Positions 24,073-48,908 of a stretch of 64,000 bases of DNA are shown here, one piece after another. The position numbers and the translations under genes were made by a program. The stretch comes from Prauserella flavalba (GTDB lineage Bacteria; Actinomycetota; Actinomycetes; Mycobacteriales; Pseudonocardiaceae), in contig NZ_MASU01000003.1 of NCBI RefSeq assembly GCF_003202235.1, positions 62,001 to 126,000 of the forward strand. Reading direction: 5' to 3'. A model generated the notes under the pieces. It did no database searches. It saw nothing but the letters and a program-made list of their open reading frames with translations, and was not told the DNA's origin. How positions within the stretch are numbered: position 1 is the stretch's first letter; each line of letters starts with the position of its first letter.

Positions 24073-24684
24073 ATGCGTGTGCTGCCGTGTGCCGACTCCG
24101 GCCTGCTGGTCGAGCTCGACGACCTCGACCAGGTCAGGGCGTTGCACGCGGCACTCGAAGCCGATCCGCCCGACGGCGTGACCGACTTCGTGCCCGCGGC
24201 CAGGACGCTGCTGCTGCGGCTCGATCCCGCTGCCGCCGACGCGGCCGGGATCGAGCAGGCGGTCCGGTCGGTCCGGCCAGGCGAGGTGAGCACGCAGGAC
24301 AGCGAGCTGCTGCGGATCCCGGTGGTCTACGACGGCGCCGACCTCGAAGAGGTGGCCATGCTGACCGGACTCACCGAGTGCGAGGTCGTCGAGGAGCACA
24401 CCGGTACGGAGTGGACGGTCGCTTTCGGTGGGTTCGCGCCCGGCTTCGGTTACCTGACGGGCGGATCGCCCCGGCTGGAGGTGCCGAGGCGGGCGGAGTC
24501 CAGGACGAGGGTGCCGGTCGGCGCCGTCGGACTCGCCGGGACGTTCTCGGGGGTCTATCCGAGGGAGTCGCCTGGCGGCTGGCAGCTCATCGGACGCACG
24601 GAGCTGAGGATGTGGGACGTCGACCGGGATCCGCCCGCGTTGCTGCGGCCCGGCGTGCGGGTGCGATTCGAGGAGGCGGAATGA
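24073..24684 (+). CDS. pxpB: 5-oxoprolinase subunit B
   Basis: A 203-residue PxpB/KipI protein. Family marks are RVLPCADSGLLVELDD at the start, VAFGGFAPGFGYLTG near residue 125, VPRRAESRTRVPVGAVGLAG, and SPGGWQLIGRT near the end. With PxpC and PxpA it forms the ATP-dependent 5-oxoprolinase that opens 5-oxo-L-proline to glutamate; KipI is also known as a histidine-kinase inhibitor in Bacillus. The ATG at 24073 is taken as start, though a GTG at 24061 would overlap the upstream stop. Its own stop is part of a 77-bp tandem repeat. Confidence 0.9.
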   Translation: MRVLPCADSGLLVELDDLDQVRALHAALEADPPDGVTDFVPAARTLLLRLDPAAADAAGIEQAVRSVRPGEVSTQDSELLRIPVVYDGADLEEVAMLTGLTECEVVEEHTGTEWTVAFGGFAPGFGYLTGGSPRLEVPRRAESRTRVPVGAVGLAGTFSGVYPRESPGGWQLIGRTELRMWDVDRDPPALLRPGVRVRFEEAE

Positions 24685-24832
24685 GCCAGAATCGCGTAGC
24701 CCGTGCTCAGTTCCGCCGACCGGGTGCGGGTGTCCCGCAGGAAACCGAGGAGGCGGAATGAGCCAGAATCGCGTAGCCCGTGCTCAGTTCCGCCGACCGG
24801 GTGCGGGTGTCCCGCGAGACACCGAGGAGGCC
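24669..24832 (+). repeat. 77-bp tandem duplication between pxpB and pxpC
   Basis: Unit 1 is 24669-24745, unit 2 is 24746-24822, and the first bases of a third (CGAGGAGG) start at 24823. Each unit begins CGAGGAGGCGGAATGAGCC. The two units are identical until the last few bases before each boundary. Each carries a ribosome site and an ATGA junction. The period of 77 equals an 81-bp ORF minus a four-base overlap, so the translational coupling is kept through the duplication. Confidence 0.93.
24681..24761 (+). CDS. Coupled micro-ORF 1 in the pxpB-pxpC junction
   Basis: A possible 26-residue peptide beginning MSQNRVARAQF and ending TEEAE. Its ATG overlaps the pxpB stop (ATGA) and is preceded by GAGGAGGCGG, and its own stop overlaps the ATG of micro-ORF 2. 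It is basic in the first half and acidic at the end, with no known motif. It may only be a relay that hands ribosomes from pxpB to pxpC rather than a functional peptide. Confidence 0.4.
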   Translation: MSQNRVARAQFRRPGAGVPQETEEAE

Positions 24833-30934: not shown

Positions 30935-31255
30935 GTGACCTATGTGATCGCCGAGCCCTGCGTCGACGTGCTCGACAAGGCATGCATCGACGAGTGCCCC
31001 GTCGACTGCATCTACGAGGGCGAGCGGATGCTCTACATCCACCCCGACGAGTGTGTCGACTGCGGAGCCTGCGAGCCGGTCTGTCCGGTGGAAGCCATCT
31101 ACTACGAGGACGACGTCCCTGACGAGTGGAACGGCTACACCAAGGCCAACGTCGACTTCTTCGACGAGCTGGGTTCCCCGGGTGGTGCGTCGAAGGTCGG
31201 CAAGACCGCTCACGACCCGCAGTGGATCAAGGACCTGCCCCCGCAGGGCGAATGA
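30935..31255 (+). CDS. fdxA: 7Fe ferredoxin
   Basis: A 106-residue ferredoxin. The cysteine pattern C..., [14 protein letters not shown] and [16 protein letters not shown] is that of a seven-iron protein (one 3Fe-4S and one 4Fe-4S cluster), followed by the usual long tail ([17 protein letters not shown]). It carries electrons in redox metabolism. The GTG at 30935 follows GCAGGAGA. Its TGA overlaps the dapC ATG by four bases; the fdxA-dapC pair matches Rv1177-Rv1178. Confidence 0.96.
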
Positions 31256-32343
31256 CCCGCGCCGCTCTACCCGACTTTCCCTGGGACTCGCTGGCGGACC
31301 ACACGGCGAAGGCGCGGGCACATCCCGACGGGATCGTCGACCTCTCGGTCGGCACCCCGGTGGACCCGGTGCCCGAGCCCATCCGTGAGGCGCTGGCCTC
31401 GGTGTCGGACATCCCCGGGTATCCCACGACGCACGGCACGCCACAGCTGCGCGCCGCCGCCGTGGAGGCGTTGCGCAGGCGGCACGGCATCGAGGGGATC
31501 GACCCCGAGGCCGTGCTGCCCACGATCGGCTCCAAGGAGCTCGTGGCGTGGCTGCCGACGCTGCTCGGCGCCGGGGCGGGCGACGTCGTCGTCATTCCCG
31601 AACTGGCGTACCCGACCTACGAGGTGGGTGCGCTGCTCGCCGGTGCGTCGCCGGTGCGGGCCGACGGGCTGACCCAGCTCGGGCCGCAGAAGCCGGCGAT
31701 GATCTGGCTCAACTCCCCGTCGAACCCGACCGGCCGCGTGCTGGGCGTCGAGCACCTGCGCAAGGTCGTGGAGTGGGCTCGGGAACGCGGCACCGTGGTC
31801 GTCTCCGACGAGTGCTATCTGGCGCTTGGGTGGGAGGGCGAGCCGGTGTCGGTGCTGCACCCCGACGTCCACGGCGGCAGCCTCGACGGCCTGCTCGCCG
31901 TGCACTCGCTGTCGAAGTCGGCGAACCTCGCCAGCTACCGGGCCGGTTTCGTCACCGGTGACCCCGCGCTCGTGCGTCGGCTGCTCGCGGTGCGCAAGCA
32001 CGCCGGCATGATCGTGCCGAGGCCGGTGCAGGAGGCCATGACGGTCGCGCTGACCGACGACAAGGCCCTGCTCGCCCAGCGTGAGCGGTACGCGGCGCGC
32101 CGGTCGGTGCTGCGCAAGGCGTTGCTGGGCAGCGGTTTCCGGATCGACCACTCCGAGGCGGGCCTGTACCTCTGGGCGACCAGGGACGAGGAGTCGGCCG
32201 CGACGGTCGGCTGGCTCGCCGAACGCGGCATCCTCGTCGCGCCGGGTACCTTCTACGGCCCCCGTGGCGGCAAGCACGTCCGGGTCGCCCTGACGGCGAC
32301 CGACGAGCGCGTCAACGCCGCCGCCGAACGCCTGCGGGCCTGA
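31252..32343 (+). CDS. dapC: Succinyldiaminopimelate transaminase
   Basis: A 363-residue fold-type I aminotransferase. The PLP site is visible in [13 protein letters not shown] (substrate/PLP-binding Asn), [18 protein letters not shown], and [19 protein letters not shown], where the SLSKS lysine forms the Schiff base. The DapC assignment rests on the family text ([19 protein letters not shown]) and on coupling to fdxA and nearness to dapD and dapE. It makes N-succinyl-LL-2,6-diaminopimelate in the lysine/peptidoglycan pathway. The ATG start overlaps the fdxA stop. Confidence 0.93.
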
Positions 32344-32349
32344 CCCCAC

Positions 32350-32620
32350 CGCGAGTCCCCCGCTCCGGCCCGCGAGTCGTGCGCTCCCGCGCGCGAGTCG
32401 TGCGTTCCCGACCGCGAGTTGTGCGTTCCCGACCGCGAGTTGTGCGTTCCGCAGCGGGCAACTCGCGGGCTCGGGCGGGGACTCGCGGGTCCGAGCGCAC
32501 AACTCGGCGTCCTGGACGCACGACTCGCGCGCTGGAGTGCACGACTCGCGGCCCTGGAGGTACGACTCGCGCGCTGGAGTGCACGACTCGCGCGCCGACC
32601 ACCGCCGGCGCGCGAGTCGG
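32350..32620. repeat. 21-bp-period array of GCGAGT units facing ACTCGC units
   Basis: Five forward GCGAGT units start at 32351, 32372, 32393, 32414 and 32435, exactly 21 bp apart. They are followed by seven reverse units with ACTCGC, or one-mismatch ACTCGG at 32502, starting at 32461, 32481, 32502, 32523, 32544, 32565 and 32586 (spacings 20, then 21 each). One more forward unit is at 32612. The consensus after GCGAGT is YGTGCGTTCCC. It occupies the whole gap between the convergent dapC and dapD genes, the longest gene-free stretch in the window. Both strands are open as 7-residue repeats, but there is no good start site, so I treat it as non-coding. Confidence 0.92.
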
Positions 32621-32629
32621 TGCCCTGGG

Positions 32630-33613
32630 TCAGTCGTTCGCGTGCAGGGCGGCGTTCAGCTCGATGCCGGTGCCCTCGCGGGGCACGACCTCGACAGCGC
32701 CCGTCGCCGAGTTGCGGCGGAACAGCACGCCGGAAACGCCGGACAGCTCGCGGGCCTTGACGGACCTGCCCTCGACGACCACCTTCGTACCCGCCGTGAC
32801 GTACAGGCCGGCCTCGACGACGGAGTCGTCGCCGAGCGAGATGCCGACGCCACCGTTGGCACCGATGAGGCAGCGCTCGCCGACCGAGATCACCTCGGTG
32901 CCGCCGCCGGAGAGCGTGCCCATGATCGACGCGCCGCCGCCCACGTCGCTGCCGTCGCCCACCACGACACCCGCGGAGATGCGGCCCTCGACCATGGAGG
33001 CGCCGAGCGTGCCGGCGTTGAAGTTCACGAAGCCCTCGTGCATCACGGTGGTGCCGCTCGCCAGGTGGGCGCCGAGCCGGACGCGGTCGGCGTCACCGAT
33101 CCGCACACCGCTGGGCGTCACGTAGTCCACCATGCGCGGGAACTTGTCCACGCTGTAGACGGTCACCGGGCCCTTCGCGCGCAGCCGCAGGCGCGTCGCC
33201 TCGAAGCCCTCCACCGGGCACGGGCCGTGGTTGGTCCACACCACGTTGGCCAGCAGCCCGAACTGGCCGTCGAGGCTCAGCCCGTGCGGCCGGACGAGCC
33301 GGTGCGACAGCAGGTGCAGGCGCAAGTACACGTCGTGCGCGTCGGCGGGCGCCTTCGCCAGCGAGGCGATCGAGGTGCGCACGGCGACGACCTCGACCCC
33401 GCGGTCGGTGTCCGTGCCGAGCAGCGCGACGGCGGCCTCGCCGAGCACCTCGGCGGCCTCCTCGCTCGACAACCGCGTGGTGCCGGCCTCGCCGTCGGTG
33501 GTCAGCTTCGGGTGCGGGAACCACGTGTCGAGCACCGTGCCGTCGGTGGTGATGGTCGCCAGGCCGACGCCGGTCGCGCCCGTGGTCTCCGGATTGGGGG
33601 TCTGCTCACTCAC
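32630..33613 (-). CDS. dapD: 2,3,4,5-tetrahydropyridine-2,6-dicarboxylate N-succinyltransferase
   Basis: A 327-residue DapD of the actinobacterial type. The N-terminal domain contains [14 protein letters not shown], followed by the left-handed beta-helix (about 150-285; [19 protein letters not shown], then [12 protein letters not shown], then [20 protein letters not shown]). It succinylates tetrahydrodipicolinate, the first committed step of the succinylase route to diaminopimelate. The GTG at 33613 gives the usual length; the 43 residues upstream in the open frame are Arg/Trp-rich shadow. It is convergent with dapC across the repeat array. Confidence 0.95.
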
Positions 33614-48380: not shown

Positions 48381-48803
48381 GTGTTCGAAAACATCGGCTG
48401 GGGCGAGATCCTCGTCCTGCTCGTTGCCGCGTTGTTCATCCTCGGCCCCGAGCGTCTGCCCGAGGCGGCCGCCTGGCTCGGCCGGTCGGTGCGCAAGGTC
48501 AGGGACTTCGCCTCCGGTGCGCGACAGCAGCTGCGCGACGAGATGGGTCCCGAATTCGAGGAGTACCGCAAGCCCATCGAGGACCTTCGCGCGTTGCGCA
48601 ACTTCGACCCGAAGCGCGCCGTGACCCAGCACCTCTTCGACGGCGACCCGGACCCGCTCGGTCTGAACAACATCAACGGCACGAACGGGCACTCCAACGG
48701 CTCGAACGGCCACGCGAACGGCATCCCCAAAGCCGCGGCCGCGCCGGCGCCCGAACCTCTCAAGCCGGGTGAGAAGCCCCCGGTGGACCCCGACGCGACG
48801 TAG
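48381..48803 (+). CDS. tatB: Sec-independent protein translocase subunit TatB
   Basis: A 140-residue TatB. One N-terminal membrane helix (about 4-22; [20 protein letters not shown]) ends in the GPERLPE turn, then an amphipathic helix ([20 protein letters not shown]) and an Asn/Gly-rich low-complexity tail with [16 protein letters not shown]. It forms the receptor with TatC for twin-arginine substrates. The GTG start is preceded by GGAGG. Its link to sigE-htrA is the same as in M. tuberculosis. Confidence 0.94.
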
Positions 48804-48811
48804 CCGACTGC

Positions 48812-48908
48812 CCGCGAGTCCCCCGCTCGTGCCCGCGAGTTCCGCGTTCGCGTCACCTCAGGCGAAGCACGAGTGGGAAACTCGCGGGGCCTGAGCAGGA
48901 GACTCGCG
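48812..48908. repeat. Small GCGAGT/ACTCGC inverted array, sister of the dapC-dapD array
   Basis: Forward GCGAGT units begin at 48814 and 48835 (21 bp apart), reverse ACTCGC units at 48880 and 48902 (22 bp apart). Sequence around the units (CCCGCGAGTCCCCCGCTC) is the same as at 32350. It fills the gap between the convergent tatB and mrp genes and ends within two bases of the mrp stop. Confidence 0.88.

What the first reader, a model, noticed from the sequence alone, without database searches (positions are those of the whole stretch)
32350..32620. 21-bp-period array of forward and reversed GCGAGT units filling the dapC-dapD gap
Five forward units at exactly 21-bp steps face seven reversed units at 20-21-bp steps, plus one further forward unit. 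21 bp is two helical turns, so every unit faces the same side of the DNA, as expected for a site bound by a cooperative protein array. It is also 7 codons, so both strands stay open as heptad repeats. The orientation switch in the middle makes the whole array a large imperfect inverted repeat between two convergent genes. I know of no described element with this layout in this group.
Basis: seen in the sequence. Interest (0 to 1): 0.75.

Follow-up and report, generated by a model that had tools for sequence, protein, structure and literature searches.

The report
Helix-phased 21-bp repeat arrays at gene ends
The repeat array between these two genes belongs to a family of 21-base repeat arrays that sit just after stop codons at many places in this actinomycete's genome and in some relatives; the sites are inherited while the repeat wording changes between species, and the arrays probably mark or enforce the ends of genes.

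Summary
The host genome (8.1 Mb, Pseudonocardiaceae by nearest named relatives) gives 361 hits of CGCGAGT-N14-CGCGAGT against 6 for the backwards control. Of 53 sampled elements, 25 lie in convergent, 27 in tandem and 1 in a divergent gap; 46 lie within 18 nt of a stop codon; 325 of 358 core spacings are 21 bp. Orthologous gaps in three congeners keep arrays at 4/4, 5/5 and 4/6 sites, with none gained in 163 other comparisons, while unit wording changes genome by genome: concerted evolution in place. No RAYT (REP-associated transposase) domain was found. Opposed arms are phase-locked at 10.5 bp, the B-DNA pitch (41 elements), again in genera g15 and g26, not in g41; a founder effect is not excluded. 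In g15 and g26 the arms run in the opposite order. Best reading: a transcription-boundary (terminator-like) array, probably read on DNA by a cooperatively bound protein, with RNA hairpins auxiliary. Protein and function are inferred. Nine paper searches found no description.

The parts
32350..32454 (+). forward arm: five 21-bp units (CGCGAGT cores at 32350, 32371, 32392, 32413, 32434), beginning 6 nt after the dapC stop codon, sense to dapC; the stop-proximal unit is CGCGAGTCCCCCGCTC, the inner ones CGTGC/TGTGC types
32455..32592 (-). reverse arm: seven units (ACTCGCG starts 32461, 32481, 32502 degenerate, 32523, 32544, 32565, 32586), sense to dapD
32584..32619. compact hairpin, 14-bp perfect stem and 8-nt loop, formed by the last reversed unit and the extra forward unit, 10 nt from the dapD stop codon; in G084 the stem differs by a paired A-T to G-C change (read by eye)
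31252..32343 (+). dapC (succinyldiaminopimelate transaminase)
32630..33613 (-). dapD (tetrahydropyridine dicarboxylate N-succinyltransferase)
48813..48908 (.). second member of the family in the window: two forward and two reversed units between convergent genes ending 48803 (+) and 48910 (-); the orthologous gap in G084, G053 and G014 holds an array with more units

Best explanation
A gene-end boundary array. Tandem runs of 21-bp units lie directly after stop codons; in this genus each arm is normally sense to the gene it abuts, and two arms face each other in convergent gaps and in many tandem gaps. Proposed mechanism: the units (CGC-GAGT-N5-RYTC) are bound at DNA level by a cooperatively assembling protein that lines one face of the helix (two turns per unit, with the phasing carried across the change of orientation). 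The bound array stops or insulates RNA polymerase at the gene end and keeps converging transcription apart; where both arms exist the transcript can also fold into a very stable hairpin that helps termination. Shown: position, period, orientation in this genus, phasing in three genera, site retention, unit turnover. Inferred: protein binding, termination, insulation. Confidence in a transcription-boundary role of some kind is about 0.6; in the protein-on-DNA mechanism as stated, 0.37 (lowered from 0.4 on recheck, because of the antisense arms listed under evidence against).
For: Gene-end placement: in four genus stretches (698 kb) arrays were called in 18 of 63 convergent, 4 of 147 tandem and 0 of 101 divergent gaps of 60 bp or more. 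46 of 53 own elements lie within 18 nt of a stop codon; all 41 two-armed ones read '><' (arms of at least two cores). In an open scan of lags 8-60, lag 21 is best in 18 of 28 repetitive gaps and 41-42 in 4 more. Apex phasing at 10.5 bp: own n=41, R=0.665, best period 10.45; G084 n=9, R=0.78, or n=10, R=0.63, p=0.019 under the rule; G129 (genus g26, opposite arm order) n=9, R=0.90; g15 n=17 pairs from six genomes, R=0.92. Sites kept in relatives: 4/4 (G084), 5/5 (G053), 4/6 (G014); the window's second site has arrays in all three.
Against: No binding protein identified. In g15 and g26 the usual order is '<>', so the arm next to a stop is antisense, often 12-118 nt away, and a few g15 and g20 arrays were classed divergent. 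In own genome 4 of 53 elements have an antisense arm within 30 nt of a stop; in G044 2 of 20 are antisense single arms and 13 of 20 lie within 18 nt of a stop (counted by eye). Apex phase falls in two classes modulo 21; at 7 orthologous loci D differs by 0, 21, 22, 22, 128, 128 and 61 bp, so phase is largely inherited with the locus. A two-founder null reaches the own value in 36% of simulations, G129's in 2.8%, g15's in 0.1%. G041 shows no phasing (n=5, R=0.16), g44 has another phase (n=3), one G019 pair is off phase. Two arms at 20 of 27 tandem sites are not needed by a simple oriented roadblock.
Confidence: 0.37

Rival explanations
1. RNA-level terminator: the two arms form a very long G+C-rich hairpin in the transcript that ends transcription without a U-tract (the 'I-shaped' type discussed for high-GC actinobacteria), bidirectionally in convergent gaps. 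The 21-bp period is only the size of the duplicating module.
For: Mean z = -9.6 for 40 '><' elements; window array z = -11.2, no U-tract terminator found. Convergent gaps without arrays also fold strongly (n=8, mean z -5.6; tandem n=31, -1.7; divergent n=20, 0.1), so hairpins seem normal at these gene ends. In tandem sites the transcribed strand folds better than its complement in 16 of 20, 14 of 20 after shuffle correction, p = 0.007. Compact dapD-side hairpin with a paired change in G084 (by eye). I-shaped terminators within 50 bp of stop codons are described for mycobacteria (PMC12288462, passages) and considered for U-less ends in Streptomyces clavuligerus (PMC8269248, passages).
Against: One-armed own arrays fold no better than shuffles (8 with mean z -1.2, 4 with +0.4; those of G044, 16 of 20 elements, were not folded). 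At 4 mapped loci both own and G084 are one-armed. Partner arms pair worse than arms swapped between loci (35 elements, -88.7 v -94.9 kcal/mol; permuted mean at or below the own mean in 99.96% of permutations). Strand-biased C-to-T change would give the same strand asymmetry. Does not predict 10.5-bp apex phasing.
Confidence: 0.3
2. Neutral or selfish minisatellites: tandem units grow, shrink and are homogenised by recombination between dozens of similar arrays; they survive only where tolerated (3' ends), and two founder apex geometries explain the phase classes.
For: Units are more alike between loci of one genome than between genomes (0.602 v 0.550 at other loci, permutation p = 0.002; 0.575 at the same locus and arm in another genome, difference not tested). 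Unit number varies at orthologous sites. Phase class largely inherited by locus; two-founder null not rejected by own data alone.
Against: Array sites kept over 78-92% regional identity, and of 166 comparisons at gaps scored arrayless in own, 163 were arrayless in the relative; the 3 others are the second window site, where own has a small array. Retention is better than for the 30-bp palindromic family (4/4, 3/8, 0/7). Close abutment to stop codons.
Confidence: 0.2
3. REP/BIME-type mobile palindromes spread by a RAYT-like transposase.
For: Extragenic, dispersed, gene-end and convergent-gap placement, as described for REPs (PMC1525189, passages).
Against: No Y1_Tnp (PF01797) match in the genome, while the control rings in 5 of 14 named genomes; sites are mostly fixed between species.
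Confidence: 0.04

Closest known systems
REP / BIME elements (bacterial repetitive extragenic palindromes)
   Same: Dispersed, extragenic, frequent in convergent gaps (PMC1525189, passages), unit with a short inverted repeat
   Different: Strict 21-bp tandem period, abutting stop codons, mostly fixed orthologous sites, no RAYT domain found in the genome
I-shaped (U-less) intrinsic terminators of high-GC actinobacteria
   Same: Strong G+C hairpin potential right after stop codons without a U-tract
   Different: Built of 21-bp modules of one genome-wide sequence family, much longer, sometimes one-armed and then not unusually structured
Neisserial DNA uptake sequence dialects
   Same: Genome-wide short motif whose wording changes by species round a constant core, with inverted pairs associated with terminators (PMC3630211, passages)
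   Different: Here the motif comes as 21-bp arrays at gene ends; in the window CGCGAGT occurs only 10 times outside the two arrays against 15.2 expected from base composition; no uptake role suggested
Plasmid iterons and TTF-I/Sal-box or Reb1-type roadblock terminators (recalled, not from a call)
   Same: Direct repeats near two helical turns bound on one DNA face (iterons); oriented protein-bound repeats downstream of genes that stop polymerase (Sal boxes)
   Different: No protein known here; chromosomal, dozens of loci, concerted sequence turnover
MIRU-VNTR of mycobacteria (recalled, not from a call)
   Same: Dispersed tandem units at stop codons, oriented with the upstream gene
   Different: Longer units inside operons; these are 21 bp, at 3' ends and often inverted

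Membership tests
REP/BIME with RAYT | RAYT (Y1_Tnp) transposase in the genome | tested here: not met
   0 matches in own genome; control rings in 5 of 14
REP/BIME with RAYT | imperfect palindromic unit in extragenic space | tested here: met
   unit contains GAGT-N5-RYTC; sampled own elements lie in intergenic gaps
REP/BIME with RAYT | variable insertion sites between close species | tested here: not met
   array sites kept at 4/4, 5/5, 4/6 orthologous gaps; none gained in 163 comparisons
Canonical intrinsic (L-shaped) terminator | hairpin followed by a U-tract | tested here: not met
   0 terminator-like sites in 32200-32750
I-shaped intrinsic terminator | stable hairpin close after the stop codon | tested here: inconclusive
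   met by two-armed own elements (mean z -9.6), not by one-armed ones
I-shaped intrinsic terminator | transcripts end there | not testable with these tools
   needs 3'-end mapping
Cooperative one-face protein array | sites spaced by whole helical turns, also across the change of orientation | tested here: inconclusive
   met in g1, g26, g15; not in g41; different phase in g44; founder effects not excluded
Cooperative one-face protein array | a bound protein | not testable with these tools
   none identified; needs pull-down
Known RNA family | Rfam match above gathering score | tested here: not met
   window 32200-32750: only MIR898 at 22.5 bits v 75 gathering
Protein-coding heptad repeat | frame constraint with neighbouring gene | tested here: not met
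   stop-to-core distance mod 3 = 22/22/21

The most novel reading that the evidence does not exclude
Some Pseudonocardiaceae mark gene ends with a chromosomal 'punctuation' system: 21-bp arrays coated on one helix face by a dedicated protein that stops or insulates RNA polymerase, with wording (dialect) replaced genome-wide in each lineage through concerted evolution while positions, period and helical phase are kept, a bacterial counterpart of protein-roadblock terminators.
Probability: 0.26. Interest if true: 0.88.

Novelty: new variant of a known kind. Interest (0 to 1): 0.67.

Why it matters
If right, it is an undescribed class of gene-end element (as far as nine searches of an open-licence library show) in antibiotic-producing actinomycetes, where how transcription ends between convergent genes without U-tracts is unsettled. 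The combination of fixed sites, turned-over sequence and 10.5-bp phasing makes a direct prediction: a protein that reads the array in each lineage's dialect, findable by pull-down. It would also be a bacterial case of genome-wide concerted evolution of repeats that stay in place.

Tried and rejected
Chance local expansion: rejected. Coding heptads: rejected. RAYT/REP membership: rejected. Known Rfam family: none above cut-off. Canonical terminator or sigma-70 promoter: none in 32200-32750. Arm co-adaptation by RNA pairing: tested, result against. Sense/antisense fold asymmetry: present, but mostly base composition and compatible with strand-biased mutation. The AT dinucleotide at unit positions 12-13 is nearly absent (4 of 373); a within-unit hairpin does not explain it. 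The first unit comparison mixed in wrong-phase units and was replaced. Apex phasing at period 21: absent (R=0.12). Literature: nine searches listed no description of this element; the library holds open-licence papers only. In the S. espanaensis and Pseudonocardia genome papers the word 'repeat' does not occur in the main text (term finds). PMC1590033 was seen as outline and abstract only.

Full report
WHAT IS THERE. The array is in the sequence as stated: forward CGCGAGT cores at 32350-32434 in 21-bp steps, reversed cores at 32461-32586 in 20-21-bp steps (one degenerate), and one more forward core at 32611. It starts 6 nt after the stop codon of dapC and its last core ends 12 nt before the stop of the convergent dapD (gene names by NCBIfam). 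A second, smaller array lies at 48813-48908, also between convergent genes.

A GENOME-WIDE FAMILY. The own genome (8,093,541 bases, 39 contigs) gives 91 BLAST matches to the array, with 40 of 175 candidates scored, and 176+185 hits of CGCGAGT-N14-CGCGAGT against 3+3 for the backwards control. The nearest named relatives by dapC are Amycolatopsis and Prauserella (81-83%), so I place the host in Pseudonocardiaceae; its own name is not given. The consensus of 232 units selected by an exact core is CGCGAGTCGTGC[GA][CT]TC[CAG][CG]G[AC]N. In 53 elements taken from the best BLAST and first-listed pattern hits plus a 200-kb stretch, 325 of 358 core spacings are exactly 21 and 15 more are 42 (steps of 19-23 and 41-43 were allowed). 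41 elements are two-armed and all of these read '><', counting arms of two or more cores; 12 have one arm. Isolated cores of the other orientation occur, as at 32611.

POSITION. In the same 53: 25 convergent gaps, 27 tandem, 1 divergent; 46 of 53 lie within 18 nt of a stop codon; 4 of 53 have an antisense arm within 30 nt of a stop. In four genus stretches, arrays were called in 18 of 63 convergent, 4 of 147 tandem and 0 of 101 divergent gaps of 60 bp or more. Lag 21 is the best lag in 18 of 28 repetitive gaps, 41-42 in 4 more, out of lags 8-60 (first version). Gene calls come from a codon-usage finder written here. In G044, another genus, 20 elements split into 12 convergent, 8 tandem, 0 divergent; 74 of 75 spacings are 21; 16 of 20 are one-armed; 13 of 20 lie within 18 nt of a stop and 2 are antisense single arms (the last two counted by eye). 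There the unit next to the stop is CGCGAGTCCCCC in 14 of 19, while inner units are mostly other types. The stop-proximal unit is of that type in 5 of 8 arms of G084, 6 of 7 of G053, 3 of 5 of G014 and 2 of 8 of own; in G084 and G053 it is also the commonest type overall. In genera g15 and g26 the usual order is '<>', so the arm next to a stop is antisense and often farther away, and a few g15 and g20 arrays were classed divergent.

DISTRIBUTION. In 297 family genomes 35, in 9 of 46 genera, have 20 or more hits of the two-unit pattern (counted by eye); many have 0-3, as the control mostly does (33 in G041). With four GAGT at 21 bp, 25 of 79 family genomes match against 23 of 318 genomes of other families in the order, there never more than 9 hits and mostly single tandem repeats; the backwards control also rings in some of those, up to 69 (counted by eye). 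Unit wording differs by genus and within g15. By eye, of 33 dapC loci printed, Saccharothrix carnea (L122) carries a two-armed 21-bp array with a different core at the dapC-dapD gap, and Prauserella rugosa (L063) a 21-bp array of another wording after dapC; I saw none in the others.

FIXED SITES, CHANGING WORDS. At the dapC-dapD gap all four congeners examined have a 21-bp array, with different unit types and numbers. Regional DNA identity to own is 92.2% (G084), 85.1% (G053) and 78.1% (G014). Of own array gaps with an ortholog pair, 4 of 4, 5 of 5 and 4 of 6 have an array in G084, G053 and G014. Of 166 comparisons at gaps scored arrayless in own, 163 are arrayless in the relative; the other 3 are the window's second site, where own has a small array under the threshold. 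The 30-bp palindromic family of the same genome is kept less well (4/4, 3/8, 0/7). Spacer identity is 0.671 within an arm, 0.602 at other loci of the same genome, 0.575 at the same locus and arm in another genome, 0.550 at other loci of another genome; 0.602 v 0.550 has permutation p = 0.002, the 0.602 v 0.575 step was not tested. Of 20 G084 array loci, 11 map to sampled own array loci; by the loose rule, 4 are one-armed in both and 7 two-armed in both, but by the rule two of the 7 (L301, L302) count as one-armed in G084.

RNA OR DNA? Two-armed elements fold far better than shuffles (40 elements, mean z -9.6); one-armed ones do not. Arrayless convergent gaps also fold strongly (n=8, mean -5.6), so hairpins are usual at such ends. 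Partner arms pair worse than swapped arms (35 elements), so there is no sign of locus-level co-adaptation. The transcribed strand folds better than its complement in 16 of 20 tandem elements, 14 of 20 after shuffle correction, which strand-biased mutation could also produce. At DNA level, the distance between dyad centres of the innermost opposed exact cores is phase-locked at 10.5 bp in 41 own elements (R=0.665; R=0.12 at 21 bp; best period 10.4-10.5). It recurs in G084 (n=9, R=0.78; n=10, R=0.63), in G129 of genus g26 with the opposite order (n=9, R=0.90; five of the nine share D=24) and in six g15 genomes by coordinates (n=17, R=0.92, best period 10.25). Against this: G041 shows none (n=5, R=0.16), g44 has another phase (n=3), one G019 pair is off phase. 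At 7 orthologous loci D differs by 0, 21, 22, 22, 128, 128 and 61, so phase is largely inherited by locus, and a two-founder null reaches the own value in 36% of simulations, G129's in 2.8%, g15's in 0.1%. I therefore call the phasing shown for three genera, and its cause (one-face protein binding) inferred.

VERDICT. A gene-end boundary element, most likely terminator-like, is the best reading (about 0.6). A cooperative protein array on one DNA face is my preferred mechanism (0.37), an RNA I-shaped terminator the main rival (0.3), and recombination-maintained neutral arrays remain possible (0.2). Passages of PMC8269248, PMC12288462, PMC3630211 and PMC1525189 were read by term search; none of those passages describes this element.

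Noticed in passing
own genome contig C3, joined stretch L153-L162, e.g. 31842-31985, 63943-64027, 158545-158669, 164804-164988: A second dispersed 3'-end family: ~25-bp palindromes (CGCAGTGAAGGCCACCTTCACTGCG) in 30-bp steps; related words in 10 gaps of the 200 kb, kept at 4/4, 3/8 and 0/7 orthologous gaps.
   Followed up: partly
own C3 about 22.5-23.7 kb (L059): One-armed forward array, then a gene, then a one-armed reversed array, present in own, G084, G053 and G014; the own gap holds two TTATCCACA (DnaA-box-like) words and the gene looks AbiEi-like (recalled resemblance, not searched).
   Followed up: no
window 32584-32619: Compact 14-bp perfect hairpin beside the dapD stop; by eye G084 shows a paired A-T to G-C change in the stem and G053 has a different hairpin there.
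   Followed up: partly
window 24669-24831: 77-bp tandem repeat, 2.1 copies at 96%, between two co-oriented predicted genes.
   Followed up: no
window 48674-48723: 21-bp repeat (2.4 copies) inside the predicted gene just before the second array.
   Followed up: no
genome G614 (other family, f8), several contigs: 21-bp GAGTGGGCGG-type repeats at several places (6+3 hits), unlike the single-place repeats of most other out-of-family hits.
   Followed up: no
G129 (g26) loci L309-L328 and g15 loci L218-L225: Arms in the opposite order ('<>'), sometimes with ACTCGCG-N5-CGCGAGT or fused ACTCGCGAGT at the centre.
   Followed up: partly
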